Shown here in pieces: positions 27,026-59,317 of a stretch of DNA of 64,000 nt. The DNA lies in the NCBI GenBank assembly GCA_947561585.1, contig CANNZV010001171.1, forward strand, positions 62,001-126,000. Direction: 5' to 3'. Both the position numbers and the translations under genes were made by a program. How positions within the stretch are numbered: position 1 is the first letter of the stretch; each line of letters starts with the position of its first letter. Under the pieces are notes generated by a model. It did not search any database, was not told where the DNA came from, and saw only the letters and a program-made list of their open reading frames with translations. This DNA is from Caprella mutica (taxonomy: Eukaryota > Arthropoda > Malacostraca > Amphipoda > Caprellidae).

Positions 27026-27111
27026 TTATGGTGGGCCATAGAAGATTTAGAGGTGAAAGTTATGGTGGGGCTATAGAAGATTTAGAGGGGGAAGTTACGG
27101 TGGGAAGATTT
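27026..27111 (+). repeat. Dispersed hairpin family, copy 1 (tandem half-elements)
   Basis: Two direct copies of the left arm, TATGGTGGGCCATAGAAGAT at 27027 and TATGGTGGGGCTATAGAAG at 27061, and a third shorter one at 27096 (TACGGTGGG), spaced 34-35 bp. Unlike the other copies, this locus shows direct tandem arms rather than an inverted pair. Confidence 0.8.
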
Positions 27112-27981
27112 GAAGAGGTTTATCGGGTTATAACACAAACATTGGGAATTAAAAATACTATAGTCACCATCACAGAAGTTGTTATAAATTCCTACATAGG
27201 ATAATATATAATTATCCTGTCCCTTGTAATATAGTTATCTACTCCATATCCTCTTCATAGACTAGATAATTATCCAGTTGCTTTAGTAGTCAAGTTACTC
27301 CACTACATCTCTTTATAATGAGTGTTTATTTAGTCTTGTGAAACACTGATGAAGTGCTTTCTTAGCCTCATGAGAATATAAGGGATTGAAACTATCATTA
27401 AAATGAGCATTCATGATATTTTTGTAGGAAAATTATTATTCTCTATAAAAAATTTAGATTGAAAAAAAATCTACCGTAACTGATTTAATATGAAAGAGAA
27501 ACTTTAGTTTACATTTATGCATTAAATAGTCTGAAGATGGGAATAGTATATCCCCGAAACGTTGCAATTTTTTTTTTCTCTCTGTTTCTTAAATTAAAGT
27601 GTCAATAATGTTAGAATATAAATTCCTTACCAAATGACTTTCCAACTGCATCCTCAATATTTTAAATAGCGACGAAAAACATCAATTTAGGAAAATAGAA
27701 AAGGCATCACTAAAATTATTAGAATTAAAAGCTCATCGCCAATTCAATATTACCTGCCAAAGAAAAAAAAAATTATCTACATGTGTATAATTATCTTGTG
27801 GTTTTAGAACTTCACCTAGATTTAGGATGAGTATATAATTAGTAATAATTTAATAACATTAGCATAATATCATTTAAATGTCAAATTGGCTGATGTATAA
27901 ATAGATTTATGGTACACATCGTTAAAAGGTAAAATAACCACATTTATTTCCATCTTTGTATATTTATGCTTCATAATTATA
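27112..27981. other. AT-rich spacer
   Basis: No gene. CTGAAGATGGGAATAGTATA then TCCCCGAAACG (27530-27562) resembles the CUGANGA...GAAAC core of a hammerhead ribozyme, but stems I and III cannot be closed convincingly. CACTGATGAAGTGC occurs near 27345. Confidence 0.4.
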
Positions 27982-29164
27982 CAGGGTGGCGCAAAAAAAA
28001 GTAAACCCATTTTCAAACTAGTTTATTTTACAAACTATCAAAGGTAGAAATTTTCTAAAAACACAGTTTTATTCGTTTACTTTTTCTGCATCTATCTTGA
28101 TAATCTGTTAAGAGTTACGATGAAAATTAAACATCCTGCAGCGAATTAAAAAATGGTAAATAAAAAGGGCTTGCGCGAGGACGAAATATACGAAAAAAAA
28201 ATCATAAGAAATATAATTCATTTTATATGGATGTAAAAAAACTAAATTCTACTATTTTTTGTAACAAATAAGAGAAAATATATAAAAAATGAATTACCAT
28301 TTGAAATTTGGTTTTTGAGATAAAATTTATATCTTTACAAAATCATTTTGCCGTTAATTTTTATCTCCTATTCGAAACCCTCAAAAGGCAGCTTTCAAAA
28401 GAACAGAGTTTTGTTGTGACAAGTTACTTAAACACTGAAAGCTTTACACAGGTTCAACCTCATCTGAACAACACTTTCTGTAAAGATTTCCACCAACTAT
28501 AAAACCATTTTGACAAACGTTAATAAATTCAAAACCGAAGAAACCACTTTAAATTTGAACAAAAGGGATCATGTCGCAGTAGAAAAGAATGAACACATGA
28601 AAACATTAATCTTTTTCATTAACAGTTTATTGGGAACCCAAAAAATCAATCAGAAATTAAGGATTAGATATCATTTTAGAGACATTGCACCTAATTGTTA
28701 AACACGATTTGAGATATCATCCTTTTAAGAAGACTCGAACTCTTAGAAATGATTTACCGCACCGTCTAAATTTTGCAAAATGGTTTCTGTCAAGAAATGC
28801 ACATTTTGTAGAAGATATCGTGATTGGTGATGAAGATGTATATATTTCAATGAATGAAAGAGTCAATAATCAAAACGTTAATTGAATGATAAATAGTAGG
28901 ATTTGTTTTTACTACCACCATATGGAAATAAATTATACCAATTATGAACTTTTTGTGTTTTTCGTCCTCGTGCAAGCCCTTTTTATTCACCTTTTTTTAA
29001 TTCGCTGCAGGATGTTTAATTTTTGTCGTAACTCTTAAAAAATTAGCACAATAGATGCAGAAAAAGTAAAAAAATTAATTAGTGTTTTTAGAAAATTTCT
29101 AGATTTGATAGTTTGTAACATAAACTTGTTTGGAAATGGGTTTCCTTTTTTTTTGCGCCACCCG
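27982..29164 (+). mobile_element. Tc1/mariner-type transposon, copy 1 (1183 bp, about 210-bp TIRs)
   Basis: Starts CAGGGTGGCGCAAAA after a TA and ends TTTTGCGCCACCCG before a TA (one T lost from the right tip). Inverted ends extend about 210 bp, through ATCCTGCAG and GGGCTTGCGCGAGGACG. The interior holds a broken transposase. TA duplication and CAGGGTGG-type ends are characteristic of the IS630-Tc1-mariner superfamily. A second copy of exactly the same length lies at 34209-35391. Confidence 0.93.
28389..28885 (+). pseudogene. Tc1/mariner transposase remnant
   Basis: Frameshifted remnant spread over at least three frames. The N-terminal part (about 28398-28500) reads SFVVTSYLNTESFTQVQ, resembling the helix-turn-helix start of arthropod mariner-like transposases, and runs into a stop at 28499. 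A later frame (28685-28885) gives HDLRYHPFKKTRTL, then a WFLSRN stretch and DIVIGDEDVY around the expected first catalytic Asp, then VNNQNV, where such transposases usually have a VN-HN motif. Nothing downstream supplies the second and third catalytic acids, so the gene is dead and C-terminally truncated. Its position between the TIRs explains its origin. Seen: motifs. Inferred: superfamily. Confidence 0.75.
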
Positions 29165-29189
29165 TATACTCGCGATGATATAAAAGGTA

Positions 29190-31050
29190 ATTTTTTATTT
29201 GTCTCGATTCTAAACTCGAATAACTTTGCATTCAATTGTCCGATTTGAACAACTTGGTATTCGTGGACTCCCTATTATTTGAAGTTAATATTATGAAGAA
29301 ATTACGTTCATCCTTATTAAATTTCAACATGACCACTATTAGATTCAACAACTAAATTAAGACGCTTCACAAATTTAACTATGGCTGCAGAGATCATTTC
29401 TTGGGAAACCTGATTAAACCCAATTAATGATAATGGCGGCTTTTAAGCGAATTCAAATTTTCATGATTTCACAATTTCCTTTGACGTCTGCCGTGAGGCT
29501 AGTCAGGTGAGAAAGTAGGCCAGGTTATAATGTTAAGATGTTAATGTTATCTTCAGCACGGTTTCGTCCAATCCACCAGCCAGGAAACTTTTTATTGTGT
29601 CATGTCTTGGCGTCTTTTTGCCAGTGACTGAGTGCTCTATCCTGCATTAAAACAAGCTCTGATGCATTAGGGAAACAACCAAATTCTGGGAAGAAATTTT
29701 CCTTCAAGATATTCAAATTGGAGTTCCCGTCAACATTTTTCATCAAGAAATATGACACGGGGAATTTCCTATCGCAGCCCAAACAATCGATTCCGTAGAG
29801 TGCAACGATTTATCAATTAGTCAAATTCACAGACCAATGGGACAAATTGTGCACATTAAATCTTCCATAGAGGTTAAAGACTTCTTCATCCGAAAACAAG
29901 AGGAGTTTGACGAATATGGATTTTTTCGAGAATTACTGTGGAAAATTTATTCTCTCGCTTAAATCCGCTGGTTTTATATGCTGGTCAACTTTGCAATGAT
30001 AAAATTTTTCTCTCACACTTTTTACAGCACATCAAGTAGCATATACTGGTACCTCCAAATTTATATCCTCTTCTCAGCGACTGCCTTTGGTGCTCCACAA
30101 AATATTTGATGACTCCATCACGGTCGACACTCAGTGGTCGGATATGGCGAGTTTCTTCGGATGACCTCTTGATCATTTTTCTGCTTGATGTAGTTTCGTG
30201 CTATATCATTAATTTGTTCTAAACTTTCTCTGCAATCTTGTATCCTTAATTGCAGCCAAAGGAAGGGAAGCATTACATGCTTTTACTTTTTTAGAAAACA
30301 TTTTGAGAAGTAATACAACGATTTCAAACATACAGGTAAAGCTCATACAATAGACAGCACATGTGCCGGACAATAATTATCAGCTATGCCTATCAATGGG
30401 CGCTATGGTGGACTCAGCTTTTACTTCAGTTGGGGATTTTAACTTTACAAGTTAAATTTAACAGTATTTCAAAGAAACATTAATGAAAGTAAACAATCTC
30501 AAATTATTTTTATACGAAAATTTTAATGAAAATCTTATAATATTCATATAACTTACTTATATAAATTTACAAATTAATACGGTAGGTGTAACTGTAACTA
30601 TTCTAACTAAAATAGAATAGTTACACCTCTTTTTATTTTCTATAGAACTTTTCTAATCAAAGAAAATTTATAGGGAAAGGGTAACTGGATCATAATACTT
30701 GCAATTTGAAAACAATTCATTAAAGTGTTTATTGTAATTTTGTAAATTGTAATACATCTGAATATAACAAATGTTTGACTAGATACTTGGTAGACGGATA
30801 AAAAATATGTTAAACAATATAATTTGAAGAGGTCGTTTAAGCGAACTATAGTCCGGTAGAACAGACAATTTTTGTCCTTTGTAGAGTCGTCCGCTGCCTG
30901 GGATTCTCCTGTATATATAGGATACCTGTTTTATTAACCAAATAAAACTCAAAGCAGTTTAGAGTCGATTCAGACCAAGTTCGTTCAAATCGGCTAATTG
31001 AATGCAAAGTTATTCAAGTTTAAATTCGATTCAAATATAAAAAAAAACTC
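29190..31050 (-). mobile_element. Second Tc1/mariner-type transposon, about 1.86 kb, decayed
   Basis: Inverted ends: left about 29190-29265 and right about 30985-31050. The shared words, reading inward from each tip, are GAATAACTTTGCATTCAATT, CCGATTTGAAC and ACTTGGT. The right arm appears only reverse-complemented. The interior encodes transposase fragments on the minus strand. The left edge is only about 25 bp from the previous element. Terminal bases are not resolved. A separate 16-bp-arm hairpin (GGTGTAACTGTAACTATTCT / AGAATAGTTACACC) lies at 30585-30628. Confidence 0.8.
29530..30180 (-). pseudogene. Mariner-like transposase remnant, minus strand
   Basis: Reading leftwards: 30176-29985 carries RQSLRRG, reminiscent of the second helix-turn-helix region. 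Near 29895 one frame gives FSDEEVFNLYGRFNVHN, matching the first catalytic Asp block and VN-HN-type motif. Near 29790 another frame has VWAAIG. 29782-29600 is open and has YFLMKNVDGN and LMQDRALSHW, the usual QDxAxxH second-Asp block (Asp near 29636). Beyond it other frames show FPGWWIGR-like sequence. Several frameshifts and stops separate the blocks, so the gene is dead. The order and spacing fit a transposase of about 340 residues. It belongs to a different subfamily from the 27982 element, whose TIRs are unrelated. Confidence 0.78.
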
Positions 31051-31270
31051 TGTAGATAAATTATTTTATTATTTTTGTATCGTCATAGCCAATCAAATCA
31101 TTTAAAAGTGACTACTCTATATTGACTTGAGTAACTTCCTTTCGAACTGTGAGTTTGCTATTCATTAGCATCATTTGATGCCATGTACGGTGTCTAATTA
31201 ATCATTGAACTGCTTGGCAACAAATTAGCTAATAGGACTTCTAGAGATGGATGGCAATGGTAATGTTATA

Positions 31271-31320
31271 GTTATGGTGGGGGACACTGATGATTGATCT
31301 TCTATGGCCCCACCATTACT
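31271..31320. repeat. Dispersed hairpin family, copy 2
   Basis: GTTATGGTGGGGGACA (left arm) and GATCTTCTATGGCCCCACCA (right arm, from 31297) form an inverted pair with a very short loop. The right arm matches the family consensus almost perfectly. Confidence 0.85.
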
Positions 31321-32443
31321 TCACCCATTGGAAAGAAAAAATAGAATCCTACATCACTTTGTATGTTCATTACGAAGTATTGATTGGTATTTAAATATAT
31401 ATATTAATATTAAAAGTTCAAATATTTTATAATTTCAAATGTTCATGTATGTTGGGAGAATTGCAAAACACAAACACTAAAAGTTATCGGAAAAAGGACA
31501 TTGACATATATTCTAAAATTATGATTATTCTTCTATGTAGGATTTTAATTAACACCCACTTTCCAAGTACTGTGGCTGTCATATAGCTCTCCATATAATG
31601 AAATAGCATTTAACAATAGCCAAAAAATAGTCTCGTATCGCAATTAGATACTATTCCAGTTCACTTCATTTGCCTCATCTAAATTAAAAGTCCTAATCTA
31701 ATCAGAGTTAAGTTGATTAGAGATTTTATTTTAGCTGATTGGGTTAACAGAGAAGTTAATTGATTGCATGATTTATTTGGTAATTTAAAATTAAAACAAA
31801 GAACCTAACCGTAACGAACATAATGAATGATACCTTTAGGTTCTGATTTGTCCTTCAAGAAATATTTTCTTATAATCAGTACATTTGAAGTATATTAATA
31901 CGAATAGTTATTGTCATTGAAATTATGATCATGAATTTTTTCATATAGCGTTTTGTTTCAAGTACCCTGTCCTAACAACATTTATTATGTAGCCTTTTTT
32001 ACAATTATATTTCAGCAAATACTTTATTTCGTATTAATTAACATTTTAGAAAACCTAATGACCAAAATGATTTTACAGTTATTATAGTACTTTCATGTAT
32101 ATCTTGAAGTTTTCTTCAATTTTTTTACCAAAAGAAAACGGAAAGGAAAATAAATAATCTAGGTTCATCACATTGTTAGTAATATTAAAAGAATTCTAAA
32201 ACTGTCTTAGTTTTTATTCTTGTATATAATCTCATAGTTTTCTATTCCATGTATTTTGTAATTTACGAAAACAAATATAATATTTAGCTTCTAAAAACTA
32301 ATACCAACATCGAAAAAGTCATACAAACAAAATCAGTTCAATATACATTGCAAATCTCAGAACAATCAGTCCTCAAGTAAATAAGTTTTCTGAAACTGAC
32401 CATGAAAACCAAAGAATTCAGGAAAATATTTCAGAAAAAGTAT

Positions 32444-32480
32444 TTTATGGTGGGCCATAGAAGATTGAAGTGGGGCTGTT
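32444..32480. repeat. Dispersed hairpin family, copy 3 (left arm only)
   Basis: TTATGGTGGGCCATAGAAGA followed by TTGAAGTGGGG. The complementary right arm is missing or eroded. Confidence 0.7.
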
Positions 32481-32779
32481 TCCTCACTCTGACTTGACCG
32501 CTGTTTCACCTGTTCTCATTCTCAAGTTAGAACCTCTCCTCTAAGCTGTAAAGTAATTAACAACACATCTGGGACTCTGAGTAAAGAAATGAAACCTGAT
32601 GTAGATATCTTCTTTACATTTAATTAAGGGAGCTTTGAACACTCACAGTTCTCGAATTGTGGAGGTGAACAGGGAATTTTAATCGATTTGTCCTTATGAG
32701 TATCTACACACTTTAGAAAAGTCAAAAATGTCAATCCATCTAAAACCCACCAACAGTCCTACAGGTCTGTATACTGCAT

Positions 32780-33120
32780 AAATATTACAGTAATAGCTTG
32801 TCTGCAGCCCATACAGAAGGGTAAAAGGTGGAGGGCTGGCTAGGAACGCATCCGCTCTTCCACCCCCAGAGGGAATGTGGGTGTTGATTTGGGGAAAAAT
32901 AACCCCCTCAGCATTCCAGGCCCAAATGAGAAATCAGTGCCACAGTGACTTTTTAATGAGGAGAATATGTCGATAGTCTAAACGACACATCCTTCTAGAG
33001 TAGACTCTAGAGCGAGATGACCTGATGGTAGAGATGTTTCAGTCTCTCCTGACTTATGTTTTGTGATGATTGACGCTCTACATCTCTGTAAGTTTTTCTT
33101 GCAGAGAGGCGTTAACTGAT
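32780..33120. other. Compositional island, less AT-rich
   Basis: Noticeably richer in G+C than its surroundings (e.g. CTCTTCCACCCCCAGAGGG), with no long open frame and no recognised motif. It may be a fragment of an unrecognised retroelement or an old exon. Confidence 0.3.
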
Positions 33121-35391: not shown

Positions 35392-38300
35392 TATTTCTTT
35401 CGTAACACATTAGTTTAATTTTTTAGTTTAATTAGCGTAGTAAAAATTGTATAATTTCTAAGTGTTTTTGAAATAAATAATTTGGTGTCTCTTATGTTTT
35501 TCATTCTCTTTGATATGTTGCTATAAGAGATATTTGTAAGACGGTTACCACAGTCTGGGAAAGCATCTTGCCTTAACGGACTAACTACGGCGTTCAAGTT
35601 TGGCACACAAGGTTACCTTTAACGGACTAATAACGGCGACGGTAACACTCCCAACGTCCTACAAATTCATTCAAGATAGGTAATAATGTTCTTATCATTA
35701 AAAATTTGTTACTATTTTCGTACAGTGCTGCTCCAAGAGACATCGCTACCTGGGATATTCTCTTCCGATATTGATAATAAATGTTGCTTTAGAATTAACA
35801 GTAGAGCTACCACGCATTTGAAACCGCTAGTACTGTCAAAATGACTGCTATTTTTATATTTCGCAATCATTCGCGGTATGTTTAAATTTTCCGTTCATTT
35901 AATTTTATTGAATGATTGTTTATTAAATAAAGTTATATAACTATAGAACTATTTCCAGGTTACTATTGTTAATAAATAGTTATTGGATTAGGTTACTAAA
36001 AGTGTCACGAATCGGGAAACTACTAGAACAACCAGACAGTCAAAATGACTGCTTTCATATTTTACACAAGTGAGATTTACAAACATGTTGAGAAATCTCT
36101 GTCAAACACTGTTGGCAGATCCACGTTGTTTAAGATTTTTCAGATCATTTTACAGAGTATTGCTTCTAGATTTTGCCAGTTCGTTTCCGTCAAAATGAAT
36201 GCTCAACTATTCGTGTTACAAATATGCTATATCTTAAAATCAATGAAATGGATGCATAATAATTTTTTGAAAAAAAAACAGTCAAAGTGACTGGTTGGAA
36301 TTTCTAGGGCTAATTAGAACAGGTATGGTTCATGAGAACTAATTTTCCTTTCACGTTTTCGGACGTTTTATTTCATAACATTTAATTCCCACTAAAATTC
36401 CCTTTCAAAAGGGACTGACACACAATAGAATTTTATTTATCAAATGTGCACAAAATGTATTCGCACAGCTTGAAAATTCGAAAATGTTTTTACATTTTTC
36501 CCTTCTTCACATCTACGAAATAGAGAAGAAATAATATTGGAATGATAAAGAAAATTCGAAAAAGTTTTCATTCTTGAGCATCAATCCAAAAATAATTGAA
36601 CTCCTAAGTACTGATTAACTGTACCTTAATTTTTTTGATAATTTATAATCTACGGCAAAATCCAATATAGTGATCGATCAAGAATTTAAAACAATATATA
36701 TCGTCTTTCGTCGGACATATACGAATGAAAATCCCGACATTAATATTTGAAAATATGATATTTAACGAGAAATAAAAATCCATAACCGACAATCTGGAGA
36801 TTATAAATTCACTTACAGGTAATTATATATTCCACTCATAAATGATATTTAAATAAAAAGTTTTTCACTATTGATAATAGCATTGAGAGTAAACATTTCA
36901 AAGTTCATTATAGTTTGAAGAGAATTTTAGCAATTAGAGCCTCCTTCAATTTTTCCCATCAGTCCTTAGAAATATCTAGTCGTAAAAGTCGGAGAGAATA
37001 ATCACAACAATATTGTGCAATGGGATGTAAAACTAGTGGAGTTCATCAAGTGATCTTCAGACTCTGTAAAAGAATGAGAGATATTTTGAGGAGATTTATA
37101 ATCATGGCAGTGAATGAGATATTTGTTGAGAATTGAAAGAATCTGATATTTGTGAACATAATAGATAGGGTAAATGAAGTGTTCTTTTGGGTTACAACAA
37201 CGCTTTTGCCCAAAAGAAAAAGATGATCTATCGAATATTAACCGGAAATCTATAAAACCTAGATAGTTAGTTAAGATACAGGCCGTGTAAGATTAAGAGG
37301 GTTGCCAATGTCTTAAATACCCTAACAATATGTAAAAAATACAGTACTGTAGGTTTTTTAAATTTAAGACGTGTGTTTTTTAAACACATAGTCAAACCTT
37401 CCCGTACATTCTGATAGTCAAACTCATTAGGATTAATCTTAGGTGGTCTAAATCTTTCTAATAATCTTATAAGTCTACACCATAACTTTCCTCTTTTAGT
37501 AATAACAATTCTTTTTAAGAGACGGCAACATACATATCTATTACTATTCCTTTCAAAATCCCATGGGTATGATGTATATTGATCACAGTCACCGTTCACA
37601 AACTCTGATGTATATTGTGGACACTGTATTAGTACACTTTTTATTGCAAGGTATAGATAATGTGAACGTGAATCAGCAATTCCCTCTAAATAAAGATGAT
37701 TTCACTTAAAAAAAATTTCTGAATATATTTGACGAAAAAATTATTTAGGTAGAATAATATTCATATAAAATTTATATGATTTATATATATATACTTGTTG
37801 CAAGTATTAAAAATAAGTATATTTATAAATCTTTTGTTTTGAAAGAGGATTATGTAGGTAAAATGTTGTACACACATGAGGTAATAATTATGCAAGTGTC
37901 ACAGTGGTTTAATAAGATATAATTTTCTGGTTATTACTTGATAATAATACAAAATTAAATTGGCTAAATTTTACTTTATATCCAATACTCAAAATATTAT
38001 TTTAAAACGATATTATCTAATCGGGTAAATCGGTTCAGTAATAATATAATTTAAATTTTATTAAATCCTTCTCAAAATTTATTTTCAGGTCTCACGTTTC
38101 CGTTAATTCTATGATTAAGTTACCAATCAATTATAAAATTACAGGACTTCATTTCGTGGTATAACTTTCTAGATCTTCTCATGAGAAACCGTAGTATTTC
38201 ATCTTCGGTTTCGAATTGAATTTTTATCCTGTTTGTTTGTCCGAAAGCTCATTCGCCTCTTCTCTGAAGTCCATTTAATCTCTAGCTTCTTAATTGGTTT

Positions 38301-39112: not shown

Positions 39113-39116
39113 GTGA

Positions 39117-41137: not shown

Positions 41138-41416
41138 TAATTACTATAGAGTCTTTTACCACATAGAGATTTTATAATATCGATATTGCAAACCGTATTA
41201 ATATAGTTTCTTAATATTATGAACATTATTTCTTTGAGTATTACTAACTTTATTAAAATAGTTTTTATCATCATAAACCTTAATTTTCAGTGAAGGAGTT
41301 TGATGTTCAAATCATATTCTAATAAATATATTCTATAGTCTCTGTCTGTTGAAGCCTGTATATACGTATTCTTGGGATTACTCTATATTTGCCCGTTAGT
41401 TAGAAAATAGCATAAT

Positions 41417-41474
41417 GTTATGGTGAGGCCACAGAAGATTCCGAAATTTAAACTTCTATGGCCCCACTATAACT
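41417..41474. repeat. Dispersed hairpin family, copy 4
   Basis: GTTATGGTGAGGCCACAGAA pairs with TTCTATGGCCCCACTATAAC across a loop of about 17 nt. Confidence 0.88.
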
Positions 41475-41524
41475 GTTTCTTTATTTATAACTAGATTACG
41501 TGCAATCGATAGAACTTTCACCGC

Positions 41525-42085: not shown

Positions 42086-42320
42086 AATACACATCGAACA
42101 CATGCATGTAAGACAATATTGATGTTTATATTATTTCCCATAAGCCCCTTACAATGTGTTTCCATTGGCGTAGTTCTATTAGCGACGCATGTAATAAGAG
42201 AAAAAGTTACCTTCATTAGCAGGGGAATAATCTCTGATTGCATTAGGAGAAACTTTATTGATCTTTGCTAACACAGATATTTCAAATGAGTACAGTTTCT
42301 TATGTCTCTACCAGAGGGAT

Positions 42321-42384
42321 ATTATGGTGGGGGTATGGGTGATTAAGAGGGGTAGTTTCTTAGCGATGGCCCACCATAAATTTC
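42321..42384. repeat. Dispersed hairpin family, copy 5
   Basis: ATTATGGTGGGGGTATGG (left) and CGATGGCCCACCATAAAT (right) form an inverted pair with a loop of about 26 nt. Confidence 0.82.
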
Positions 42385-42729
42385 TCCTATAGACTATATA
42401 ACCTTTTTATGGTGAATTTATGATAGTGATTTATAATCGGTAGGTATTTTCTGATAAATGCTATAATATAAAATCCGTAGTGACGTATAATGTCGATAAT
42501 TCGGACATTATCGTCCAAAGAAATCGTTTTAATATAATAGGGTAAGATCCGATTTACCGGTCAGTTCCATATCTTTGGTCATATAAGAAGAAACGATATT
42601 TTAATAATTATTTTATTTTCATTTTAATTGGTATCTTGACACCTGCAAAAAATATTTCAACTTTGTATTGATTACTGAATTTAAATTATGATGTATTGGA
42701 ATATTTTTAAATTATTTGCTTACGTTATA

Positions 42730-43792: not shown

Positions 43793-44963
43793 AAAATTAT
43801 TATGGATTTTTCAAAATCAAAATTTTGTTTACAAAACGGTTAATTTAACCAATTTAGTTGATTGCAATTGGATTTATTGTTTATTGTTTATTGAAATTCT
43901 GTTCACATTAAAATACAAAATAAAAGTAATACAATTTTAAAATACAAACAGTTTGATTCTTTAAAAGTCTAACGTGACTTGTAGAATCTAAAAATATAAA
44001 ATCTACCTAAAAATAGAATACCTACTCAAAAATATAAATCTATCTAAAAATATAAAACCTACCTAAGTTACCGGTCTGCATAAGTCAATATTAAAAGTAA
44101 CAAATACAAAGTAAAAACATATTAAACAGGACTAGGGTTATAACGGTTAAGACAATATTTTCTATATTTTTTTTAAAACTGTAGTTGGACATAGGGTTAC
44201 ATAAAAATGCAGGTAAATTGTTAAAAGCTTCGATAGATCTAAAAATAGTGAAATTTCTCTCCATCTCTAATCTAATTCTTGGTAAAATTGATTCTATATC
44301 CTCTGGCTTGATGGTCATGTGCAGGAATAAAATCATTAAAATACTTTTCTAAAATCATGGGATCTTCATATAAAGATTTCTTTAAAAATGACAATAAAAA
44401 ATAATTACATACAAAATAATTACATACATTTATTTTAATACACTGATATAGTGATACGTCTTGATAATCCATTAACACTTAGTTTGACATTATTTAGTAT
44501 CCGTAAGTACTTCAACGGTTGTTTCCCTTTACTCTCACTTTCTCCAAATTCCCCATCATTTTCACTACAGTCACCATAATTGTTTAATAATTCCACATCA
44601 CTTTCTCCTCATTCCCCATCACTTTTTCCCCATTCCCCATCACTTTCAATATCATCAATTTCTTTTCCAAACTCAAACATTTTTTTTACAAAAAGGTGAA
44701 TTAAACAACAGTAAAAAGAGGTGCCTGGTTGGAGGATTTTTTCTCCTCCATCATCCTTACAGTGAAAATTGAAATAATTTTTTAATTTGATGGGGAGGAG
44801 AGAAAGTGATGGAGAATTGGAGAGAAAGTGATGTGAAATTTAAAAAAAATTACGGTGACTGTAGAGAAAATCATGGGGAATTTGGATACTAAATGTTGTC
44901 AAACTAAGTTTTTATAAACAAAATTTCGATTTTGAAAAATCCATGATAATTTTTCCAGTACTG
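43793..44963. mobile_element. Tc1-like MITE split by a LINE insertion
   Basis: CAGTACTGGAAAAATTAT at 43793 and its complement ending at 44963 are the tips; TA follows the right tip and CA precedes the left. The arms are long: AAAATTTTGTTTA, then TTAGTTTGACA, TTTAGTATCC, CTACAGTCACC and CACATCACTTTCTC occur on both sides. The left arm is interrupted between about 43838 and 44473 by a truncated LINE. Without it the MITE would be about 540 bp. CAGT-type tips are typical of Tc1-like elements. Confidence 0.85.
43857..44472 (-). pseudogene. 5'-truncated non-LTR retrotransposon, C-terminal ORF2 fragment
   Basis: On the minus strand, two overlapping frames carry the C-terminal end of a Jockey/CR1-type ORF2. 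44478-44272 has SLYEDPMILEKYF and HDHQARGYRINFTK; after a frameshift, 44336-44091 has ERNFTIFRSIEAFNNLPAFL and SFKKNIENI, matching the NxLP...FKxxL block near the end of such polyproteins (compare IWNELP in the intact ORF2 at 231-3125). The element's 3' end is at the left, marked by repeated TTTATTG (CAATAAA on the coding strand). The 5' part including RT is missing, as expected from incomplete reverse transcription. It sits in an arm of a Tc1-like MITE, so it inserted after the MITE. Confidence 0.72.
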
Positions 44964-45480: not shown

Positions 45481-46802
45481 TGGGTATAGGAAAAATTCTT
45501 CATGGAAAAAAGGTTCTAGGAAAATTCCACTAAGGAAAGTTCCATTGAGGAAAGTTCCACAGAGGAAAACTCCTTTAAGGAATATTCCACTGCGGAAAGT
45601 TCCACTGGGAAAATTCCACTGAGGAAAATTTCACTGAATATAAATCAATTTATAAACTGTACTGCTTATTTTCTAAAACAATACTTTAGAAATTATCATC
45701 TTCAAATTATATAAGCTTTTTGTGATATTCATTCCACCATTCCTTTTTAAGTGGTTTAATAAAATGTAAGTGAATCTCATTACATAAATTTTGTTAATGT
45801 TTATTTTCTTTGTGCATTGCTAAGCTCCTTCTACTTGAGATTAAGATAATTCTACTTACAAAAAAACACTAAAAAAAATATATTTAGCCTCTTGTTCTGC
45901 AAATCTGATTATAGTTAAATTAATTTGAATGTAAGTTCGAGTTCTAAGTAGAGGCAAATAAAATATTTGTTATACGAGACGATAGTTTGTAACAAAAAGA
46001 CAATGAGCACAAAGAATACATCAGTTTATATATTAATGATGTGGACAAATTCTACAATTTAGACATGTTAAATATAGAACAACAATAAAAATAAATTTAA
46101 AAGGAATGCACTATAAATTGTAAAAATAATAATCAAGCTCAGTCTTGATATCAATTTCCGTCTTGAAATCCACACACTTATCGTTTGAAGCGTGAGTGAA
46201 TTGCCTCGTATTTATATGAAAATTATATTTTCAACGTAATGTAATGTCTTTTAGTAATATTAATCCGTTTTCGTCTTGATATCCAAGCAGAATTAAAAAA
46301 AAACTTTAAATCTTTTAATTAAACTTTAAACATATTATTTTATTTAAAAACATAAATATAATAATGCAAGAATAGAAGTAGGACAAAAATACTTCACACA
46401 AATATAGTTCAAATTTCCATAGCCTTATTGGTTAAAGACACTATCCTACACCCTTCTAGTATAACATTGAACAGAGATAAATAATTATTTTAATGAAGTA
46501 AACGTTTACTAGCTATCAACTTACAGGAACAGTATCACCTGCTCAGCTAAAATAATTTATCAAAATATATTATGGACTGCTATTTGGAAGGAACTGTATC
46601 GATTGAGAATAAAATGAATACTACATATTATTTTTCCAGAGAAATCCTAGGAAAAAGTTCGTGGTCGATTTTTAAATATGGGATTTTGTTTAGGGGAATT
46701 TTCTCCAGTAGAATTTGCACAGTGGAACTTTCCGCAGTGGAATTTTCCTAAGTGGAATGTTCCGCGCACCGTAAAAAATCCCTATGTAGATTTTCCCCAG
46801 AA
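45481..46802. mobile_element. Iteron-ended foldback element (GAGGAAAGTTCCACTG unit)
   Basis: Left end 45482-45636: about nine 16-bp units like GAGGAAAGTTCCACTG. Right end about 46690-46766: the same unit inverted (CAGTGGAACTTTCC). The left tip reads GGGTATAGGAAAAATTC, loosely like the GGGTGACCGGAAA tips at 50557 and 53387. The 1.05-kb interior is AT-rich and non-coding. Borders and target duplication are uncertain. Confidence 0.72.
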
Positions 46803-48554: not shown

Positions 48555-48935
48555 CATTTTCGTTAGTTTTATCAGCTGCAATAATTACAAAGCACAAAAA
48601 ATTGATGTTTCTTATTAGGTATTTAGCTTGAGACTGATGGTCAAGGATTGATACTAGGGATATGTAGCTATCAATAGACAAACAGGGCACAAAGGTGTTT
48701 TCAGGGGGATTTTTTCCAGATACCATATTAATGGTATACATTACGCTCAGTGTTTTAAATGGTATATTACGTATTGTATTAAATGGTATATTAAACTATA
48801 CATTGTAAATATTTTTATTCCAGTGAACAATGTTTGAAATTAGATACAATTTAATCTACATTTATTTCAATGCAATAATCAGATATCTAACACTCTTATT
48901 TCCGATAGTATATACAGTACATATTCAGAGAGAAA

Positions 48936-49010
48936 GTTATGGGGGGTCATAGAAGATTATGTATGGCATCTTTCACGTTTCGGTTGCCCAACATAACCCC
49001 CTTTTTAGTT
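48936..49010. repeat. Dispersed hairpin family, copy 6
   Basis: GTTATGGGGGGTCATAGAAG at the left, with an eroded right arm GGTTGCCCAACATAAC. Loop about 30 nt. Confidence 0.78.
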
Positions 49011-50180: not shown

Positions 50181-50556
50181 TCTAGTGTTTTGACGATTAG
50201 GATGTAAGATCTGATATGGAACAACTTTTCGTTTGAAAATATTATCTTCTGTGGGTTTATGTAAGTCTTGGAAATCCCATGACAAAGATTTGGACGCTGG
50301 AATTTGTGTTTTACAATGAGTTCTTAGCATCTGTGTACTTTGTATGGTTTATGCTTTAAATCATACTTCATGGTCTTCTGAGTTGTCTATAGTAGGAAAA
50401 ATCTAATTTTCGTACCACTTGACGAATTGAATTTGCGTGTTTTCGTTCATTTCTTGCTGGTTTAGCGTTTGCACAGTTAGGTTAAAGCTTTAGTCATCCT
50501 GTTTACAAAGAATTTGCAATTCCTTTTTTTAAACGCTTCTAATACCCAAGTGAAAC

Positions 50557-50789
50557 GGGTGACCGGAAATTTCGGTTTCGAAATATTCGGTCTGGAAATT
50601 TTGGTCTCAGAATTACAAATGGCTTCTCAACATAAATGGCCGTTATGTAGTTTGTTGTATCCGCTAGTTTGTTGCATTGCAAACTTCATGATGGATGACC
50701 TGGCATGAGGGTTGGGGGGGCGGTTCATAAGTTCTATTTATTCCTCAGAGCGAATATTTCGAGACCGAATTTTCCGCTCAAATCTCAGG
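50557..50789. mobile_element. Short iteron-ended foldback element (15-bp unit)
   Basis: Starts GGGTGACCGGAAATTTCGG; three 15-bp units follow (GGAAATTTCGGTTTC, GAAATATTCGGTCTG, GAAATTTTGGTCTCA). The right end has inverted units (GCGAATATTTCGAGACCG, then AATTTTCCGC). Total about 233 bp. Its tip is the same as that of the element at 53387, although the internal units differ. Part of its core (TTTGTTGTATCCGCTAGTTT at 50650) recurs inverted near 54320. Confidence 0.75.
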
Positions 50790-53386
50790 TTAAATAAATG
50801 TCAAAACATCAAAATGAATAATATTACGTATCATTTTACACCGGTTAATGATGTTATCAGCTTTTAATAAATACACTACACATTTTAGTATCTATAATTA
50901 TAACATTTTCTATTATTGTTCTTTAATAAAATCATTACAATAAAATTCAAGACCTAATGCAATTGAAAGATTTTTTTGCTGTTATTCGATTTTTCAATAG
51001 AAATTTAATCTCACTTCGGCAGGTGATCCTCAGCTTCTATATTTAAGTACAATAAACTTTTTTACCCTCAGAAAATATTTTTATTCATGTGGAGAGAGAT
51101 AATTTTAATTAAAAAAGAAAATTCTCGTGGGCAACATAAACAGAAATCTTGTATTATGACTACCAGAAGATACATATATATATATGTTTAAATTAAAATA
51201 ATATTCTTCATTTCTTATGATTTATGAAATCAATTATTTCTATCACCCTTGTACATGCAATTTATTGAACCACTAGTGTATTCTCCCGGTAAAAATAACG
51301 GGTCCTCATCATTACCAATTTATTACCCGTTATTTCGTTTCTTTTAATGAATTCAATTAAAATTAAATTTTCTGCAAAGTCTAATTATTTTTAATACCCG
51401 TCGTGTAAAAGCGGACACCAAATAAATAAATAAACACACTAAGGAAATTATTAGTATGGATATTATCAAAATATCTTTCTATATAAATAAAAACCGATGT
51501 GAATAATTAAATGTATTTCGTGTCCACTTTAAGTAATTAGATAGGACTAAATAAAGTACGTAGCCATGGATACACACGGGAATATATTGATAATTTGATA
51601 TGATATTTAACTCTTATGTTTTTATTCCATTTTAAATGTTTTTCATTTATTGAATATATATCAGTCTATGCTGAAAACTAAATTTATTCAAAAAGAGTTT
51701 TTTAGCACTGCAGGAAATAATAAAATAGGGGTTTATATATAAATAATTAAATTTGAATACATGGAACATGTGTGGATTGTCTTTGAAAACCCTATATTTC
51801 TTAACGGGAAAGTACACTAATTATATTAATAATATTAATAATTAATTAATATTATTTAAATAAAATCTCTTACCAGAGTGATAGTTATGGTAGAGCAGTA
51901 GGAGATCAAGGTGGGATACCACTAAATCTTCTCAGGCCCCACCATAACTTTCTTCTCTGCTCACCACACTAATATTTCACTTCAAAAACCTATCCGACAG
52001 AAAGTCGATATCCTAAGAATTTCCCAAACACTTTATGAAATTTTGAATAGTTCAAATATTCTGATATTTCTCTCTGTGTAAATATTCCAGGGATGTTACA
52101 ATTCTCATGTAAACTATTCATAAATGATTTCCTGAGATTCAATCGCACAGCAATATTAGCAGATATCCAAGCAATTAGACTCTCGATTGAGTATAGCCTG
52201 ATCTAGAGCTGTAATTAACCAAGCAATTGGCTAGCAGTTAACTCTGCTAGGAACAATAACAGTTCCAATAATAATTGCAAGTGTCAGCTGCAGTTTCTAG
52301 CAAGACTCTTTGATAAAGTCCTTACGTTTGTTGTACTGCCAATTGCTTATATATTTAGCAGCACTCTTTGATAGCACCACCCCTTCTTGATCCACATCTA
52401 GAAATCATTTCTCAGCGTTATTAATTGGATCCTTGGACGCATGGGGGCATTCCTTTGAGTCAGAAGCTTCATTAGTAATATCAGATGTACAAATTCTTAA
52501 CGATAAATCTCTATTCTTCATGTCCACTTCTTTGTGATGAATGAATAACACCTAATTATAGGTCTCTGAACTACCTATAGTATTATACAAATATAATTAT
52601 TATGTAACAGAATTATTATAGTGTGATGTTTAAACCTTTCTGCTCGAAGTGGACATATAAAAGTAATGAATTATTATATTTTCCTAAAAAAATAAAAAAA
52701 TATGCGTACTATTTCTTTTATTCAAATACATATGTACGCTTACATTAGTTGAAGCACAATTTGTAATATACGGTATATATTTCTTCACATTTAAAAAAAA
52801 AATCTTGTTTTATTATTCAATATGCTTAGTTTGCCTGTATATTACATGAATTTCAAAACATTATTTTCTTTTTCATTTTCAAACTATTTCAGTGCATAAT
52901 GGCTTAAATGAGTTACAAAGAATTTTACAGTAGGTAGAGCATTTATCAGGCTTATAGAACTCCTCCACTCTTCAGTTTTTATAACTCTGATTTGTACCGG
53001 TCACTGAGAATAAATCTCTGCAAACCATTTCATTTGTTATCAATATTGCAATTTATGTTGTTCGTGTGAGTTTTGCAATACCTGCCGAATTTCTATGCTG
53101 ACTAAGCAAATAAAATGTATGGCGTACATCAGACTAATTCAAATCATTAAGATATACCTACACCGTTACCAAAATACCATTAGAAAAAATAACATTAGGT
53201 TCCAATAAAAGTACCTAATTACCACGAGAGATTGTTGGCATTCCTCCCTTGTTCTTCTATTTAATCTATTAGAAACTCGGACAGAGAAGGTTGAGAGTGA
53301 ATATTTCCTATATAATTAAATAGGAATTAAATACTGGTTGCACCTTTGAGGTTAGAAATTAAAAGGTTACTCCCACTAAGAATATA
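50790..53386. other. AT-rich intergenic stretch
   Basis: No gene. Contains a perfect 11-bp inverted repeat AAATAACGGGT / ACCCGTTATTT (51293-51303, 51325-51335) and one dispersed hairpin copy at 51883. Otherwise nothing recognised. Confidence 0.45.
51883..51953. repeat. Dispersed hairpin family, copy 7
   Basis: GTTATGGTAGAGCAGTAGGA (left) and AATCTTCTCAGGCCCCACCA then TAACTTTC (right). An internal GGTGGGATACCAC makes a second small stem-loop. Confidence 0.85.
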
Positions 53387-54165
53387 GGGTGACCGGAAAG
53401 AAGCCGCAGGAAAAATGAACACAGGAAAAATACTCACAGGAAAAAAGCACACAGGAAAAATGTCCCCAGGAAAAATACCCACAAGGAAAAATGCTCACAG
53501 GGAAAAATATCCACAAGGAAAAAAGCCCACAGGTATAAATATTAATGGAGATAGTGTCCCTTGCGTTCAGAACTGTTGTAATTTGGATTGTGTATCATGT
53601 TTTTCCATATTTACCATATTTATAATTTTTAAACGCTACTTGCAGTTTTAGAGGATAGCGCTAGGGTTATGCTCTTCAACTATGAGGTACTAGATTTTGT
53701 GTTAGGTAGGCTCGTAGGCTTCATTTACTATCACCTCTTCATTTTCCTCTTCCATCTGTGAGTGCAGCAACCTGTGCTTTTGCCTCTTTTCGTGTTATGT
53801 TACTGCATTCACGGAGTAGATATTTTTGCATCCATTAGTTTTGTCACCGACGGTAGTAGGTGACTTTGGTTCATGGAGCCACTTTCCTTTCTGACTGCTT
53901 CTTCCAATTCTTTTGTTAAATTACATTTCGACTTCGGTGATATAGTCAAATGGCTGAAAGCTGACGTTAAACCCTGTACTAAAATAAATTAAAAACAACT
54001 GTATTTTAGAATATTTGCCGTTAACTTAATACCTTTTTGGGCTTTTTTCCTGTGGGCCTTTATACCTGTGGGCTTTTTTCATTGTGGGTTTTTTTCCCTG
54101 TGGGAATTTTTCCTATGTTTTTTTTTCCTGTGGGCTTCTTTCCTGTTGTCTTCTTTCCAGGAACC
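53387..54165. mobile_element. Iteron-ended foldback element (CACAGGAAAAATACC unit)
   Basis: Left end 53387-53535 begins GGGTGACCGGAAAGAAGCC, then about nine 14-16-bp units such as CACAGGAAAAATACTC. Right end about 54035-54165 has the inverted unit (GGGCTTTTTTCCTGTG) and finishes TCTTTCCAGGAACC. The flanks AGAATATA and GAAATATA agree at 6 of 8 positions and could be a degraded 8-bp target duplication. About 500 bp of non-coding interior. FB/TU-like by architecture. Confidence 0.78.
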
Positions 54166-55835
54166 GAAATATAATTTTAAAAATATTGTTCTTGGCGGAT
54201 GAAATTTTTAAGAATGTGTTTTTAAGGTTAGTAACTCATTGATTGGCTATGGAGATTGACCAATGATAGTATCCATCCCTCTACCAGCTCATTATACATT
54301 CATGAAGTGTGAAGTACAACAAACTAGCGGATACAACAAACAACAAATCAGAATTCTCTTTTGATAGTTTCACAGTTTTTATTATTTGAAAATTAATTTT
54401 GTTCAACTCATAACTATATGCAAGGAGGATGAGCCAAGAAGAGGCGGAGCAATAACTGTGTAGTACTCCGTCCCCTGTTGGCTTCTCCTCGTTGCCGACC
54501 AATCAGAGAAGAGTTAACCTCAAAAAGTTATCCGTAAAAACAAGATTCTTGCGGAACACTATCGATAGAAACTTATGCGTAGTTTACTATAATTATGAAA
54601 TTTTAGACGGAAGCAACATAAACTTTTTGGGCAAACAGGCGAATACTTTATTAATTTCTTTTCTGTTAAGTGTGATATGTTATACAGCCTTAGCTCTCAT
54701 AAGATAAAGAATTTCTACATTTTTTATGTATCGTGGACTATGTAGGCGACTTTTAACTATCTTCTAGATTGTGAAACAGTGAAGTGATTTAGGTAAATTT
54801 AAATGAAATTCTTGTTGAAATATAGGATCAGTAACTTTATCAGAATAACTTAATAATTAAAAAAAATTCGTGTTAGAAAAAGATTAATTTTTGAAGAAAA
54901 ATGAGATTTTCAATTTTCACAGCATATTTTTTGTTATTCACATTATAGGTATAACAATCCCAAAACTTTCAATAGTGCACATCTATACATGAGCTAATTA
55001 TTAAATTCCGCGATACTATACTTCACTGAAGAATAAGAGTGCAGACAACTTAATCTTTTACCACCCCAACAATTTTCTCTCGGGGTCGCTGTATTCTTCA
55101 ACAAAAATGTTTTCCTTTCATCCAATTCTCTCAGAGTTCATCAACAGTTTTGACACAAGTGAACTTTGATCTTTGCCACAAGATGTTTGAATCTTTTCTC
55201 CTGTAAATTCACCTCAGGCTTTTAGCAAGAGTTCATCATTATGTGTACACATTCTTCTCCAGATAAATTATTTAGAGGATTTCTTCCCTGTGACAAGAGG
55301 CGTATTATCAGGCATTAAAATTGACTGGAGGTTATTTGAATTTATCAGGCATATCTTTATCATGAAGCTTATTAGTAACAGTTGGAGTTGTACCATTTAT
55401 CATACTGTGTCTGCCCTCATTTTTATGTGGATGTTTGTGTATAATGCAGAATACACATTTCACCTTTGAGGGACAAACATGCTGAAGGATCTAACGAAGA
55501 TTTGTGACTAAAGGGTATATTGTTCGATAGATCCTTTACAATCAGGTAGAAATTAAGTTTGGAAAATCGGTAGTATAAAGACTCTAGAATTCTTTATCCT
55601 GAATTGACTATAAGAACAAACAAAATGTTGGATCTTTCATTTGAAATCTGCATTTCCATGTTACTTAATGCAATTTTTCGAAATTTCATTATTCGTGAGA
55701 GATAATTCAGTATATGCCTTATGCAAAGAAATTAAAATTTTGATCTTATCGATGCATATTTTCGTAATCGAAATGAGTTATTCAATTCTAAACCAATCAT
55801 TGATCTCCTGGTTCCGTCGCGTTTCCACAGAGAAA

Positions 55836-55906
55836 AGTATGGTATACAGTAGATGTGTTAAATGGGGTACGTCCCCTTCTATTCTTCGATAGTCTCACCA
55901 TGACTT
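55836..55906. repeat. Dispersed hairpin family, diverged copy 8
   Basis: AAGTATGGTATACAGTAGA (left) and ATTCTTCGATAGTCTCACCA then TGACTT (right). The right arm aligns with the consensus over about 22 of 29 bases; weaker than the others. Confidence 0.5.
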
Positions 55907-56400
55907 CACTATTCATATAAATATCATTTATGAAACACATAAAAAACATATTTTATTTTTAGAAAAAAAGACAACTCTATCCTGAATATTAAACATTCAT
56001 TTTCCATTTTTTGTTTTAATTCATTGAAAAGCAATTAAATTAAATTAAATTACTATCAAATAATCAAATTTCCTATAAAAAAATTCAACTTCGTAAATCG
56101 TTCTATTCATTATTATTATCAATTTCTCTACCATAAAGCAGTTAGAGCAGTAAAAATAAGTTATATTTAATATTCAACTTTACAGTCATTAGTATATTTA
56201 GATAATTTATACAGAGACCGTAAAAGCAATTTGCAGTGAGGATTAAAACCAAAACATTATGCTTTCCATCATTTTTCTCTCTACTGTCGGTACTGAATCT
56301 CTTTTTAAAAACAAATTAAAGCAGTAAAAAATAAAAGATAAAATGTTTTAGAGAGGCATGGAAAAAGATGCTTTTTACAATTATTTGTTTAAATAAAAAA

Positions 56401-56460
56401 GGGCTACGAAGAATAAGGTGGGAAACGATTTATTCTTCTATGGCCCCACCATAACTTTCT
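56401..56460. repeat. Dispersed hairpin family, copy 9
   Basis: Truncated left arm GGGCTACGAAGAATAAGG and complete right arm TTCTTCTATGGCCCCACCAT then AACTTTCT. Confidence 0.85.
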
Positions 56461-56588
56461 CTCTTGGTATAAATGATATGCAATGATATGATAATGAACT
56501 ATAATTTATTATAAACTTTTGGAACAAAAATGAGCTAAAATGATATTTAAAGAGGACATGATAAGTGAAATATAAATTTTAATGAAAT

Positions 56589-57345
56589 AATGATAGTATG
56601 ACAATAATGATAGTATGACAGTAATGATAGTATGACAATAATGATAGTGTGACAATAATGATAGTATGACAATAATGATAGTGTGACAATAATGATAGTA
56701 TGACAATAATGATAGTGTGACAATAATGATAGTATGACAATAATGATAGTATGATAATAATGATAGTATGACAATAATGATAGTATGACAATAATGATAG
56801 TCTGACAGTAATGATAGCATGACAATAATGATAGTATGACAATAATGATAGTGTAACAATAATGATAGTATGACAATAATGATAGTGTGACAATAATGAT
56901 AGTATGACAATAATGACAGTATGACAATAATGATAGTATGACAATAATGATAGTATGACAATAATGATAGTATGACAATAATGATAGTATGACAATAATG
57001 ATAGTCTGACAGTAATGATAGTCTGACAATAATGATAGTATGACAATAATGATAGTATGACAATAATGATAGTATGACAATAATGATAGTATGACAATAA
57101 TGATAGTCTGACAGTAATGATAGTCTGACAATAATGATAGTATGATAATAATGATAGTATGACAATAATGATAGTATGGCAATAATGATAGTATGACAAT
57201 AATGATAGTATGACAATAATGATAGTCTGACAGTAATGATAGTCTGACAATAATGATTGTATGACAATAATGATTGTATGACAATAATGATTGTATGACA
57301 ATAATGATTGTATGACAATAATGATAGCATGACAATAATGACAAT
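56589..57345. repeat. 17-bp minisatellite, about 44 copies
   Basis: Unit TATGACAATAATGATAG with recurring variants (GTGTGAC, TCTGACAG, GCATGAC, GATTGTATG). The plus strand is very C-poor, like the 22-bp satellite. All three minus-strand frames are open for 265-322 codons because 51 bp (three units) contains no stop; the predicted IIIVILSLLSYYHYC-like repeats are artefacts. Confidence 0.96.
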
Positions 57346-59317
57346 TATACCAATAATATCTGTTCGACAATGTCCTCGTATTCCTCGGTACCGGCGGCTT
57401 AACCACATGGAATTATTTATAGAATGAGGAGAATTCAGACAATTTGCACGCATGGAATCACTCCAGTCAGCCGACAAATTCGCCCATTGAGCTTTGTTCT
57501 GAAATGACGAAAATGATTTACTGAAATGACATGAAATGTGACAAATTGCTGAGGGAAGAGTGTCCCAAAACCTACCAGAGTCATGTAAAACATGATATTA
57601 AAATTATCTACAGTGGCAAGCTATTATTGCTGGATATTTTGAAATATTGATTCGAGTTTTCCTTCATTATTGCACCAATAAATGGTATAGCCTGTTAGTA
57701 ACATTATTTATGAAATATTGTCTAAATAATGCAGCAATAATTATATAATTACCATTATAACAATATTGACGCAATGTTGTTTCAAAATTGGGCCAATAAC
57801 TCTGCAATAAAGCTGTTCATTAACAATATTAACGCAATATTGTTTCAGATATTGTCTCAATATTGTAACAATAAATATTGTTACCTAGGTTCATATCCTT
57901 CCATTTGTTTAAGAAAATAATAGTCATGTAACATTAAAACTAATGAATAAATCGGTGGCACATTTTATCTACAGTGCCGCCTCGTTATATAATTTAATAT
58001 GCATTTAACATTTCTCCAGTGAATCGTGCCTCATTTTCACTATAATATGATTATGAAGTTCCTTTTTATGCGTTGCAGAATAATGAACATTACCGTCCAT
58101 CAATCATGTTCATCATTTTAAATCACATTATGCTACTTTTACATTATAATATCAAATAGGACTGTAAATTCTCCTGCAAACCAGACAGTGAATTATAGTG
58201 GGGCTATGGAAGATTAAGTATGTTTCCTTTTCATTTTCGATGGTCCACCATAAATAATACCATGCTCATCTTTTTCAATCACATTAAGCTCTATTTAGTC
58301 TATAATATAATTGCTACAGGAGCGTTAAATAATTGACTAATCATAAGATTAAACCATTGCATGATCATACAGAGTAATCTGCATCAACATTCCAATCACA
58401 ATAAAGGGAAGATAAAACACCCACAGTATAGCTATTCTAATCATCTAAGCTAGATTGCATTATGGAACACCTACGGCTTGCAGGCAGCTCAATTTAATGT
58501 AAATTAATGCAATAAATTCTTTGACTTTCATTGTAGTGACACTTTTACGTCTATTTGGCTTCGGAACAATTTGTAAAATTGAATTTTTCATTGTAATATT
58601 AATATTTCTTCAAAGTTATATGATATTGGTGAAGATAGATAACTGTAATCATTGAAGTTTTTACTGGTTAGTGACTTAGTTTATGATTCCTGCATCTGGC
58701 AAAAGTTTTCGGTGTGATCGGCCACGTTGATGATGTTCTTGCTTTTCCCCAATCCAAGCTTACTCTAATCTATCAGTCCTAACAATTGTATACCTCTTCT
58801 ATTTAGAGAAATGAACCATCTTTGTACTAATCTGTATACTCTCTTAGAGCCATTCTTGTCGATCGTACCTAATACAGTGGGTCAAAAGAGGCCGTTTTTC
58901 AGGAGCAAGGATCCGTCCTAAGATAGAGTTAACGGCACCATTTGATTTCAAGCAGATTTACTTGTTCCAAAACTATTTTAATGTTCTCCAAGACTTCTTC
59001 AAAAGCTGCTCCTAAGGTAAGTACAATAGTTATTTGCTACAGTTTCTAGGAATTCAGCTTCTCTCCAGGTCTTCTTTGGAGATCCAAACCCGATGTCGCT
59101 TCTCCATATCAGCTGACTTTCCAAGCCATACAGGAAGAACAGATAATTTCAATCAGGTAATTACTGTGTAACTTTATCACATTGGCAAAATTACGGTTTA
59201 GATAAAGAAAACTTTTTTATTTCAAAAGACATAGGAGTGTTTCATATTTTTATTTGTAATCTTTTTAACTCAAAATTTATATATTTATTTATAATCTTGT
59301 TTCATTCGAAAAAATTT
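57346..59317. other. AT-rich stretch
   Basis: No gene. 57620-57895 is dense in AATATTG/CAATATT inverted words. One hairpin-family copy lies at 58193. Confidence 0.4.
58193..58253. repeat. Dispersed hairpin family, copy 10
   Basis: TTATAGTGGGGCTATGGAAG (left) and TTCGATGGTCCACCATAAAT (right), loop about 20 nt. Confidence 0.85.

What the first reader, a model, noticed from the sequence alone, without database searches (positions are those of the whole stretch)
27026..58253. A dispersed 60-75-nt hairpin family (about ten copies) not explained by any other element
Loci at 27026, 31271, 32444, 41417, 42321, 48936, 51883, 55836, 56401 and 58193 share a left arm close to TATGGTGGGGCCATAGAAG and a right arm close to CTTCTATGGCCCCACCATA, separated by 5-30 nt. 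The arms are better conserved than the loop, and the G/C-rich stem stands out in very AT-rich DNA. Copies lie in unique sequence, not inside the transposons here, and none is seen in the first 26 kb. Hairpin size and shape resemble a pre-miRNA or a minimal TIR-only mobile element. One locus (27026) has tandem direct arms instead. Compensatory changes appear in places (GGCCACAGAAG opposite CTTCTATGGCC tolerates mismatches), but I cannot test selection.
Basis: seen in the sequence. Interest (0 to 1): 0.8.

Follow-up and report, generated by a model that had tools for sequence, protein, structure and literature searches.

The report
Palindromic mini-transposon with tandem arms
The scattered hairpins look like worn copies of a very short palindromic piece of jumping DNA whose arm has also multiplied into tandem arrays across a large genome; it is a new family of a known kind, not an RNA gene.

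Summary
The hairpins are real. An arm model built from copies outside the window matches all ten loci (best arm of each: E 1.9e-11 to 0.045), nothing in the first 26 kb and nothing in the reversed window. In the window's own 903-Mb genome the 19-nt arm has 35,827 matches with up to 2 mismatches (reversed control 4,502); a 32-nt end-plus-arm pattern has 3,068 (control 0).

The composite consensus is a palindrome of about 89 bp: CCCAGAGAGAAAGTTATGGTGGGGCCATAGAAGATTAAGAGGGG, A/T, and the reverse complement. Close inverted neighbours converge at 632 places and diverge at 15. Direct tandem junctions number 10,136, so the tandem locus at 27026 is typical, not odd.

Arms of one copy pair no better than arms swapped between copies, in three samples: no sign of a selected RNA hairpin.

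Best reading: a non-autonomous TIR-only element (like MADE1) whose arm unit expanded into minisatellite arrays (as reported for Xstir and Tetris). TA at the ends is only suggestive. Transposase, superfamily, target duplication, empty site and organism are not established.

The parts
27024..27118 (+). three head-to-tail arm units (27026, 27060, 27095), the third worn
   Evidence: nhmmer E 9.6e-6 and 3.5e-9 for the first two; TRF period 35; third unit by eye
31270..31322 (.). two-armed palindrome copy
   Evidence: arms 31270-31295 and 31297-31320; right arm E 6.9e-7
32439..32469 (+). left arm only; no right arm could be aligned
   Evidence: E 5.5e-5
37457..37495 (-). doubtful, very worn single arm
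   Evidence: alignment score 20.3 against shuffle maximum 13.9 but nhmmer E only 0.93
41414..41481 (.). two-armed palindrome copy
   Evidence: E 9e-5 and 8.2e-8
42311..42389 (.). two-armed copy with CCAGAG left end
   Evidence: E 0.55 and 0.031; end
48925..48996 (.). two-armed copy, left arm good, right arm worn
   Evidence: E 7.6e-7; right arm 5 mismatches
51873..51953 (.). two-armed copy with CCAGAG left end
   Evidence: E 0.04 and 1.3e-4
55825..55906 (.). two-armed copy, both arms worn
   Evidence: E 0.85 and 0.045
56401..56466 (.). copy with perfect right arm and a left arm that has lost its outer half
   Evidence: E 1.9e-11 for the right arm
58181..58253 (.). two-armed copy with CCAGAC left end
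   Evidence: E 3.8e-6 left arm; right arm 3 mismatches

Best explanation
The hairpins are worn copies of a non-autonomous, TIR-only DNA element: a palindrome of about 89 bp in composite consensus with a recurrent outer end (CCCAGAG...CTCTGG(G)). Inferred: it was moved as DNA by a transposase supplied in trans that bound the inverted arms, perhaps at TA targets, so the stem is alike between copies by descent and as two transposase-binding ends, not because an RNA folds. Inferred: slippage or unequal exchange, helped by the palindrome, let one arm grow into head-to-tail arrays of 26-49-bp units, so that one element left single palindromes, lopsided foldbacks and one-way arrays. Shown: copy number, palindromic consensus, convergence of close inverted pairs, the same outer end on hairpins and arrays, absence of covariation. 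Not shown: transposition itself, transposase, superfamily, target duplication.
For: 35,827 arms with up to 2 mismatches, reversed control 4,502; 3,068 end-plus-arm matches, control 0. Palindromic centre 632 places, control 4; diverging pairs 15 places on six contigs, control 0, 11 of them in two arrays; direct junctions 10,136, control 0. In held loci: 312 direct, 23 converging, 0 diverging neighbours. Both sides share the same 35-nt consensus outward from the centre in 20 fetched copies (9 of those positions are fixed by the search pattern). The outer end occurs before single units and before arrays (15 of 40 end-selected loci show two or more direct units, by eye). Arrays can end in a centre and one inverted arm (L014, L018, L027). 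No covariation. TA directly outside 23 of 70 placed ends against 5-13 of 70 at the ten positions further out; the L063 flank probe overlaps by exactly TA.
Against: No transposase with these ends: none in 98 window ORFs, no arm in the 3' flanks of ten Tc1-like genes (best 9 mismatches of 24). No empty site: one probe returned only its own locus. TA is at only 14 of 40 end-selected loci and 7 of 26 other ends (AA 7, TT 6), too few for a strict TA target. No longer target duplication in 17 two-ended copies. Direct junctions far outnumber palindromic centres, which would also suit a minisatellite-first history. Some arrays share flanks (L024 and L025, 83% over 255 bp; L076 and L078), so some spread by duplication, not transposition. 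The reversed control is unexpectedly high and unexplained.
Confidence: 0.75

Rival explanations
1. A dispersed minisatellite came first: the 26-49-bp unit spreads as tandem DNA (ectopic exchange or circles), and hairpins are places where a replication error or inversion turned a unit round.
For: Direct junctions 10,136 against 632 palindromic centres; several periods; shared flanks of some arrays.
Against: Random inversion should make converging and diverging pairs alike; 632 places against 15 (the two patterns differ in length and gap range), 23 against 0 in held DNA. Most window copies are single palindromes. The consensus is palindromic to its centre.
Confidence: 0.12
2. Hairpin end of a Helitron or Helentron-like rolling-circle element: hairpin, short spacer, CTGG, then T, with tandem repeats carried inside, as in oyster Cg_HINE elements.
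For: CTCTGG end 12-13 nt outside the hairpin, often followed by T; Cg_HINE elements carry arrays and a 3' palindrome (PMC7492417, section 7).
Against: The same end is seen on both sides of two-armed copies (L056, L063, L088 by eye), whereas Helitron ends are asymmetric (recalled); no shared flank such as the left and right modules of HINEs was seen in the aligned loci.
Confidence: 0.07
3. A family of hairpin RNA genes (pre-miRNA-like) kept by selection.
For: Size and shape; palindromic MADE1 copies gave rise to human mir-548 genes (PMC1784062, passages), so single copies could be recruited.
Against: No covariation in three samples; in the window 32 of 45 one-sided changes break the pair; no Rfam match at threshold.
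Confidence: 0.03

Closest known systems
MADE1 (human palindromic MITE related to Hsmar)
   Same: TIR-only, nearly perfect palindrome of like size (80 bp, two 37-bp TIRs around 6 bp; PMC1784062, passages), many dispersed copies, miRNA-like shape
   Different: Different sequence; MADE1 has a known autonomous relative, this one has none found; here the arm also forms tandem arrays; TA target only suggestive here
Xstir/Xmix MITE and miDNA4 of Xenopus
   Same: MITE, tandem array and composite of both found in one genome (PMC12628747, passages; PMC9659126, passages)
   Different: There the repeated part is internal to a longer MITE; here the unit is the arm itself with part of the end and there is no other internal sequence
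Tetris and Galileo (foldback-type elements of Drosophila)
   Same: TIRs with a variable number of tandem units that can grow into longer arrays, the two arms varying separately (PMC4079207 abstract and one section; PMC3573991 passages)
   Different: Units of about 210-220 bp, TIRs up to kilobases, target duplications of 7-10 bp; here a 34-bp unit, about 89 bp in all and no such duplication found
Cg_HINE Helentrons of oyster
   Same: Short mobile elements that disperse tandem arrays and hold a palindrome (PMC7492417, abstract and one section)
   Different: Asymmetric modules, subterminal repeats and microsatellite are lacking in what was seen here

Membership tests
MITE / non-autonomous TIR element | short, no coding capacity | tested here: met
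   about 89 bp in consensus
MITE / non-autonomous TIR element | terminal inverted repeats with fixed outer ends | tested here: met
   the right end is less regular than the left because loci were chosen by the left
MITE / non-autonomous TIR element | high dispersed copy number | tested here: met
MITE / non-autonomous TIR element | target-site duplication | tested here: inconclusive
   TA 23 of 70 ends, TA on both sides in L056, L057, L063, L088 by eye; no longer duplication in 17 copies
MITE / non-autonomous TIR element | precise empty sites | tested here: inconclusive
   one probe, own locus only
Tc1/mariner superfamily | transposase gene with the same ends | tested here: inconclusive
   6 mariner-type matches, flanks not read; at least 150 Tc1-like matches, 3' flanks of ten read, no arm
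Tc1/mariner superfamily | TA target duplication | tested here: inconclusive
Foldback element | inverted arms built of tandem units | tested here: met
   L009, L014, L018, L051, L060, L069
Foldback element | 7-10-bp target duplication as in Galileo and Tetris | tested here: not met
   offset scan of 17 two-ended copies, no offset stands out; copies are old, so power is limited
miRNA gene family | hairpin kept by compensatory change | tested here: not met
miRNA gene family | precise small-RNA product | not testable with these tools
   no reads held
Helitron/Helentron | asymmetric ends and Rep-helicase partner | not tested
   symmetry of ends seen by eye only; no Helitron gene search was run

The most novel reading that the evidence does not exclude
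Arrays of different period at different loci (26, 28, 31, 34/35, 47/49 bp) keep the core TATGGTGGGGCCATAGAAG while the spacer changes. Beyond common descent this could mean that the core is held as a binding site, of the lost transposase or of a domesticated host protein (compare the CENP-B box, recalled), so that a dead palindromic transposon became a genome-wide set of protein-binding arrays.
Probability: 0.07. Interest if true: 0.6.

Novelty: new member of a known kind. Interest (0 to 1): 0.3.

Why it matters
It is a compact, countable case of a tiny palindromic element and tandem arrays of its arm living side by side: single palindromes, lopsided foldbacks, one-way arrays and, from the regular spacing at C6154, apparently arrays of whole palindromes are all in one genome. 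It makes the route from MITE to minisatellite testable with unit trees. It is also a reminder that hairpin finders can take such palindromes for pre-miRNAs. Otherwise it is an ordinary repeat family.

Tried and rejected
Rejected or lowered: pre-miRNA family (no covariation); part of the LINE at 174-3125 (no copy there); random inversion of a minisatellite (converging far exceeds diverging). Tried without result: text search of open-licence papers for three forms of the arm (0 papers); exact arm in IMG/VR (0); blastn of a 77-base probe in phages (no match); Rfam on 27000-58300 at E up to 0.5 (two matches, both far below threshold); target duplications by offset scan (17 copies, largest excess about 3.4 SD among 900 offset pairs per length); an empty site inside dispersed repeats (L085 abuts a repeat, but its other flank does not match it); empty-site probe of L063 (own locus only); arms near ten Tc1-like genes.
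Full report
What was checked. The ten loci were read, aligned and scored against shuffled or reversed sequence. Each is a real relative: in the arm model built without the window, the best arm of each locus has E between 1.9e-11 (56401) and 0.045 (55836), with 0.031 at 42321; the reversed window gives nothing at E up to 1. The first 26 kb hold no match; 11.5 kb of that is one 22-bp satellite (9422-20923) and 3 kb a LINE ORF (174-3125, endonuclease and reverse-transcriptase domains).

Where it comes from. The window is G000:C1171:62001-126000 of an unnamed assembly of 903,207,152 bases in 7,200 contigs. The arm with up to 2 mismatches occurs 17,612 + 18,215 times; read backwards 2,349 + 2,153 times. 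I cannot explain that high control. The longer end-plus-arm pattern has 1,470 + 1,598 against 0. In 20 evenly spaced 10-kb stretches of contig C4, 8 arms with 4 or fewer mismatches were found, 3 of them in one stretch, and 0 controls; the window has 7 in 64 kb, so it is richer than that contig.

Anatomy. Eighteen two-armed copies, picked by eye from 40 loci chosen by a good left end, give TAC-CCAGAGAGAAAGTTATGGTGGGGCCATAGAAGATTAA...TTAATCTTCTATGGCCCCACCATAACTTTCTCTCTGG; the left end there is fixed by the choice. Of 50 palindromic centres listed out of 632, 24 have the full length of 35 that the pattern allows, and their consensus centre is AAGAGGGG-A/T-CCCCTCTT. Twenty of these, fetched with flanks, show the same 35-nt consensus outward from the centre on both sides. 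The 89-bp figure (44 + 1 + 44) is a composite of these results; I have not seen one copy that matches it throughout.

Tandem forms. Loci fetched after the first search hold head-to-tail arrays: L016 73 units of 28 bp, L018 16 units of 46-49, L024 40 units of 34 or 35, L027 76 units of about 26, L028 29 units of mostly 34 or 32, L014 7 units of 31; L024 and L027 run to the edge of the stretch. Exact direct junctions number 4,813 + 5,323 against 0, palindromic centres 632 against 4, diverging pairs 15 on six contigs against 0; 8 of the 15 lie at C6154 and 3 at C306, with the regular spacing of tandem copies of whole palindromes. The three patterns differ in length and gap range, so their ratios are indicative. 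In held DNA (L009-L088 and the window) the close neighbours were 312 direct, 23 converging and 0 diverging. Of the 40 end-selected loci, 15 show two or more direct units in the stretch read (by eye), so arrays and single palindromes share the outer end. Some arrays end in a palindrome centre and one inverted arm (L014, L018, L027). This is what growth of one arm inside the element would leave; that is inference. Against pure transposition, L024 and L025, both on C18, share 255 bp of flank at 83%, and L076 and L078 share flanks: part of the family spread by duplication of larger segments.

Structure as RNA. In the window's eight two-armed copies 185 cells were comparable (15 more had a gap): 132 unchanged on both sides, 45 changed on one side (32 break the pair, 13 keep a standard pair), 8 changed on both (3 pair, 5 do not). 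Pairing within copies is 0.800, with arms swapped between copies 0.801 (P 0.61). The 24 centres give 0.625 against 0.612 (P 0.30), the 20 fetched copies 0.577 against 0.593 (P 0.88). The last two samples overlap and were selected for a perfect 9-bp inner stem, which was left out of the tests. The arms wear independently, as expected of dead DNA elements. No Rfam family reaches its threshold in the window.

Ends and target. Seventy outer ends could be placed with an end model. TA directly outside occurs in 23, against 11, 10, 11, 7, 8, 5, 13, 7, 7 and 10 of 70 at the ten positions further out. Forty-four of the 70 lie in loci chosen by the end pattern; among the other 26, TA is 7, AA 7, TT 6. 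In the 40 end-selected loci the base before CCAGAG is C in 25, and TA precedes it in 14, AA in 7, TG in 5. L056, L057, L063 and L088 have TA on both sides by eye, L061 and L098 with worn ends. A strict TA target should show more often in loci with so well kept an arm, so I treat TA as a lead. No longer duplication was found in 17 two-ended copies. One empty-site probe (L063) returned only its own two flanks, overlapping by the two bases TA.

Mobilising enzyme. None found. In the window, 98 ORFs of at least 58 aa outside the arrays and the LINE match no transposase family at E up to 0.01 (one match, DUF1523 at 0.0045). In the genome there are 6 mariner-type matches, 4 with stops inside, and at least 150 Tc1-like DDE_3 matches out of 2,693 first-look candidates, many without stops. 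The 600-bp 3' flanks of ten of these hold no arm (best 9 mismatches of 24); 5' flanks, the other 140 and other superfamilies were not examined.

Comparison. MADE1 is closest in anatomy (PMC1784062, passages). Xstir is closest in behaviour: MITE, array and composite (PMC12628747, passages). Tetris and Galileo show the same on a larger scale (PMC4079207, abstract and one section; PMC3573991, passages). I therefore call this a new member of a known kind. That this family is not in print was tested only by searching open-licence full texts for three forms of the arm (0 papers), which would miss a family described by name or in a supplement.

Noticed in passing
window 23408-23505 / 24342-24441; 45518-45637 / 46695-46765; 53407-53541 / 54038-54158: Three further pairs of short tandem arrays (15-bp units) lie inverted to each other 0.5-1.1 kb apart, like foldback elements of other families.
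   Followed up: partly
window 9422-20923: An 11.5-kb array of a 22-bp satellite, 523 copies at about 92%.
   Followed up: no
window 174-3125: Long LINE-type ORF of 983 codons with endonuclease and reverse-transcriptase domains; nearest listed relatives 52% identical, mostly unnamed metagenome proteins.
   Followed up: no
window 63245-64000 and about 26990: A 16-bp array with GTTTCGTCGACA; a GTTTCGTCGACG stretch also stands about 40 bp before the tandem copy at 27026.
   Followed up: no
L012:1147-1254 and L032:366-480: A related hairpin (TTAGGGTG...) with a similar left flank in both places, perhaps a sister family.
   Followed up: no
G000:C6154:10910-11842 and C306:665712-665823: Regularly spaced diverging pairs: apparently tandem arrays of whole palindromes.
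   Followed up: no
G000:C1: At least a dozen intact Tc1-like/IS630-like matches, many of equal score and length, on a contig of over 4.4 Mb; it could be a bacterial symbiont or contaminant contig.
   Followed up: no
window 44592-44837: Rfam MIR7533 match of 34.9 bits, far below its threshold of 230, in a region with long inverted repeats.
   Followed up: no
G000, reversed control: The arm read backwards has 4,502 matches with up to 2 mismatches, far more than chance would give; some other repeat must resemble it.
   Followed up: no
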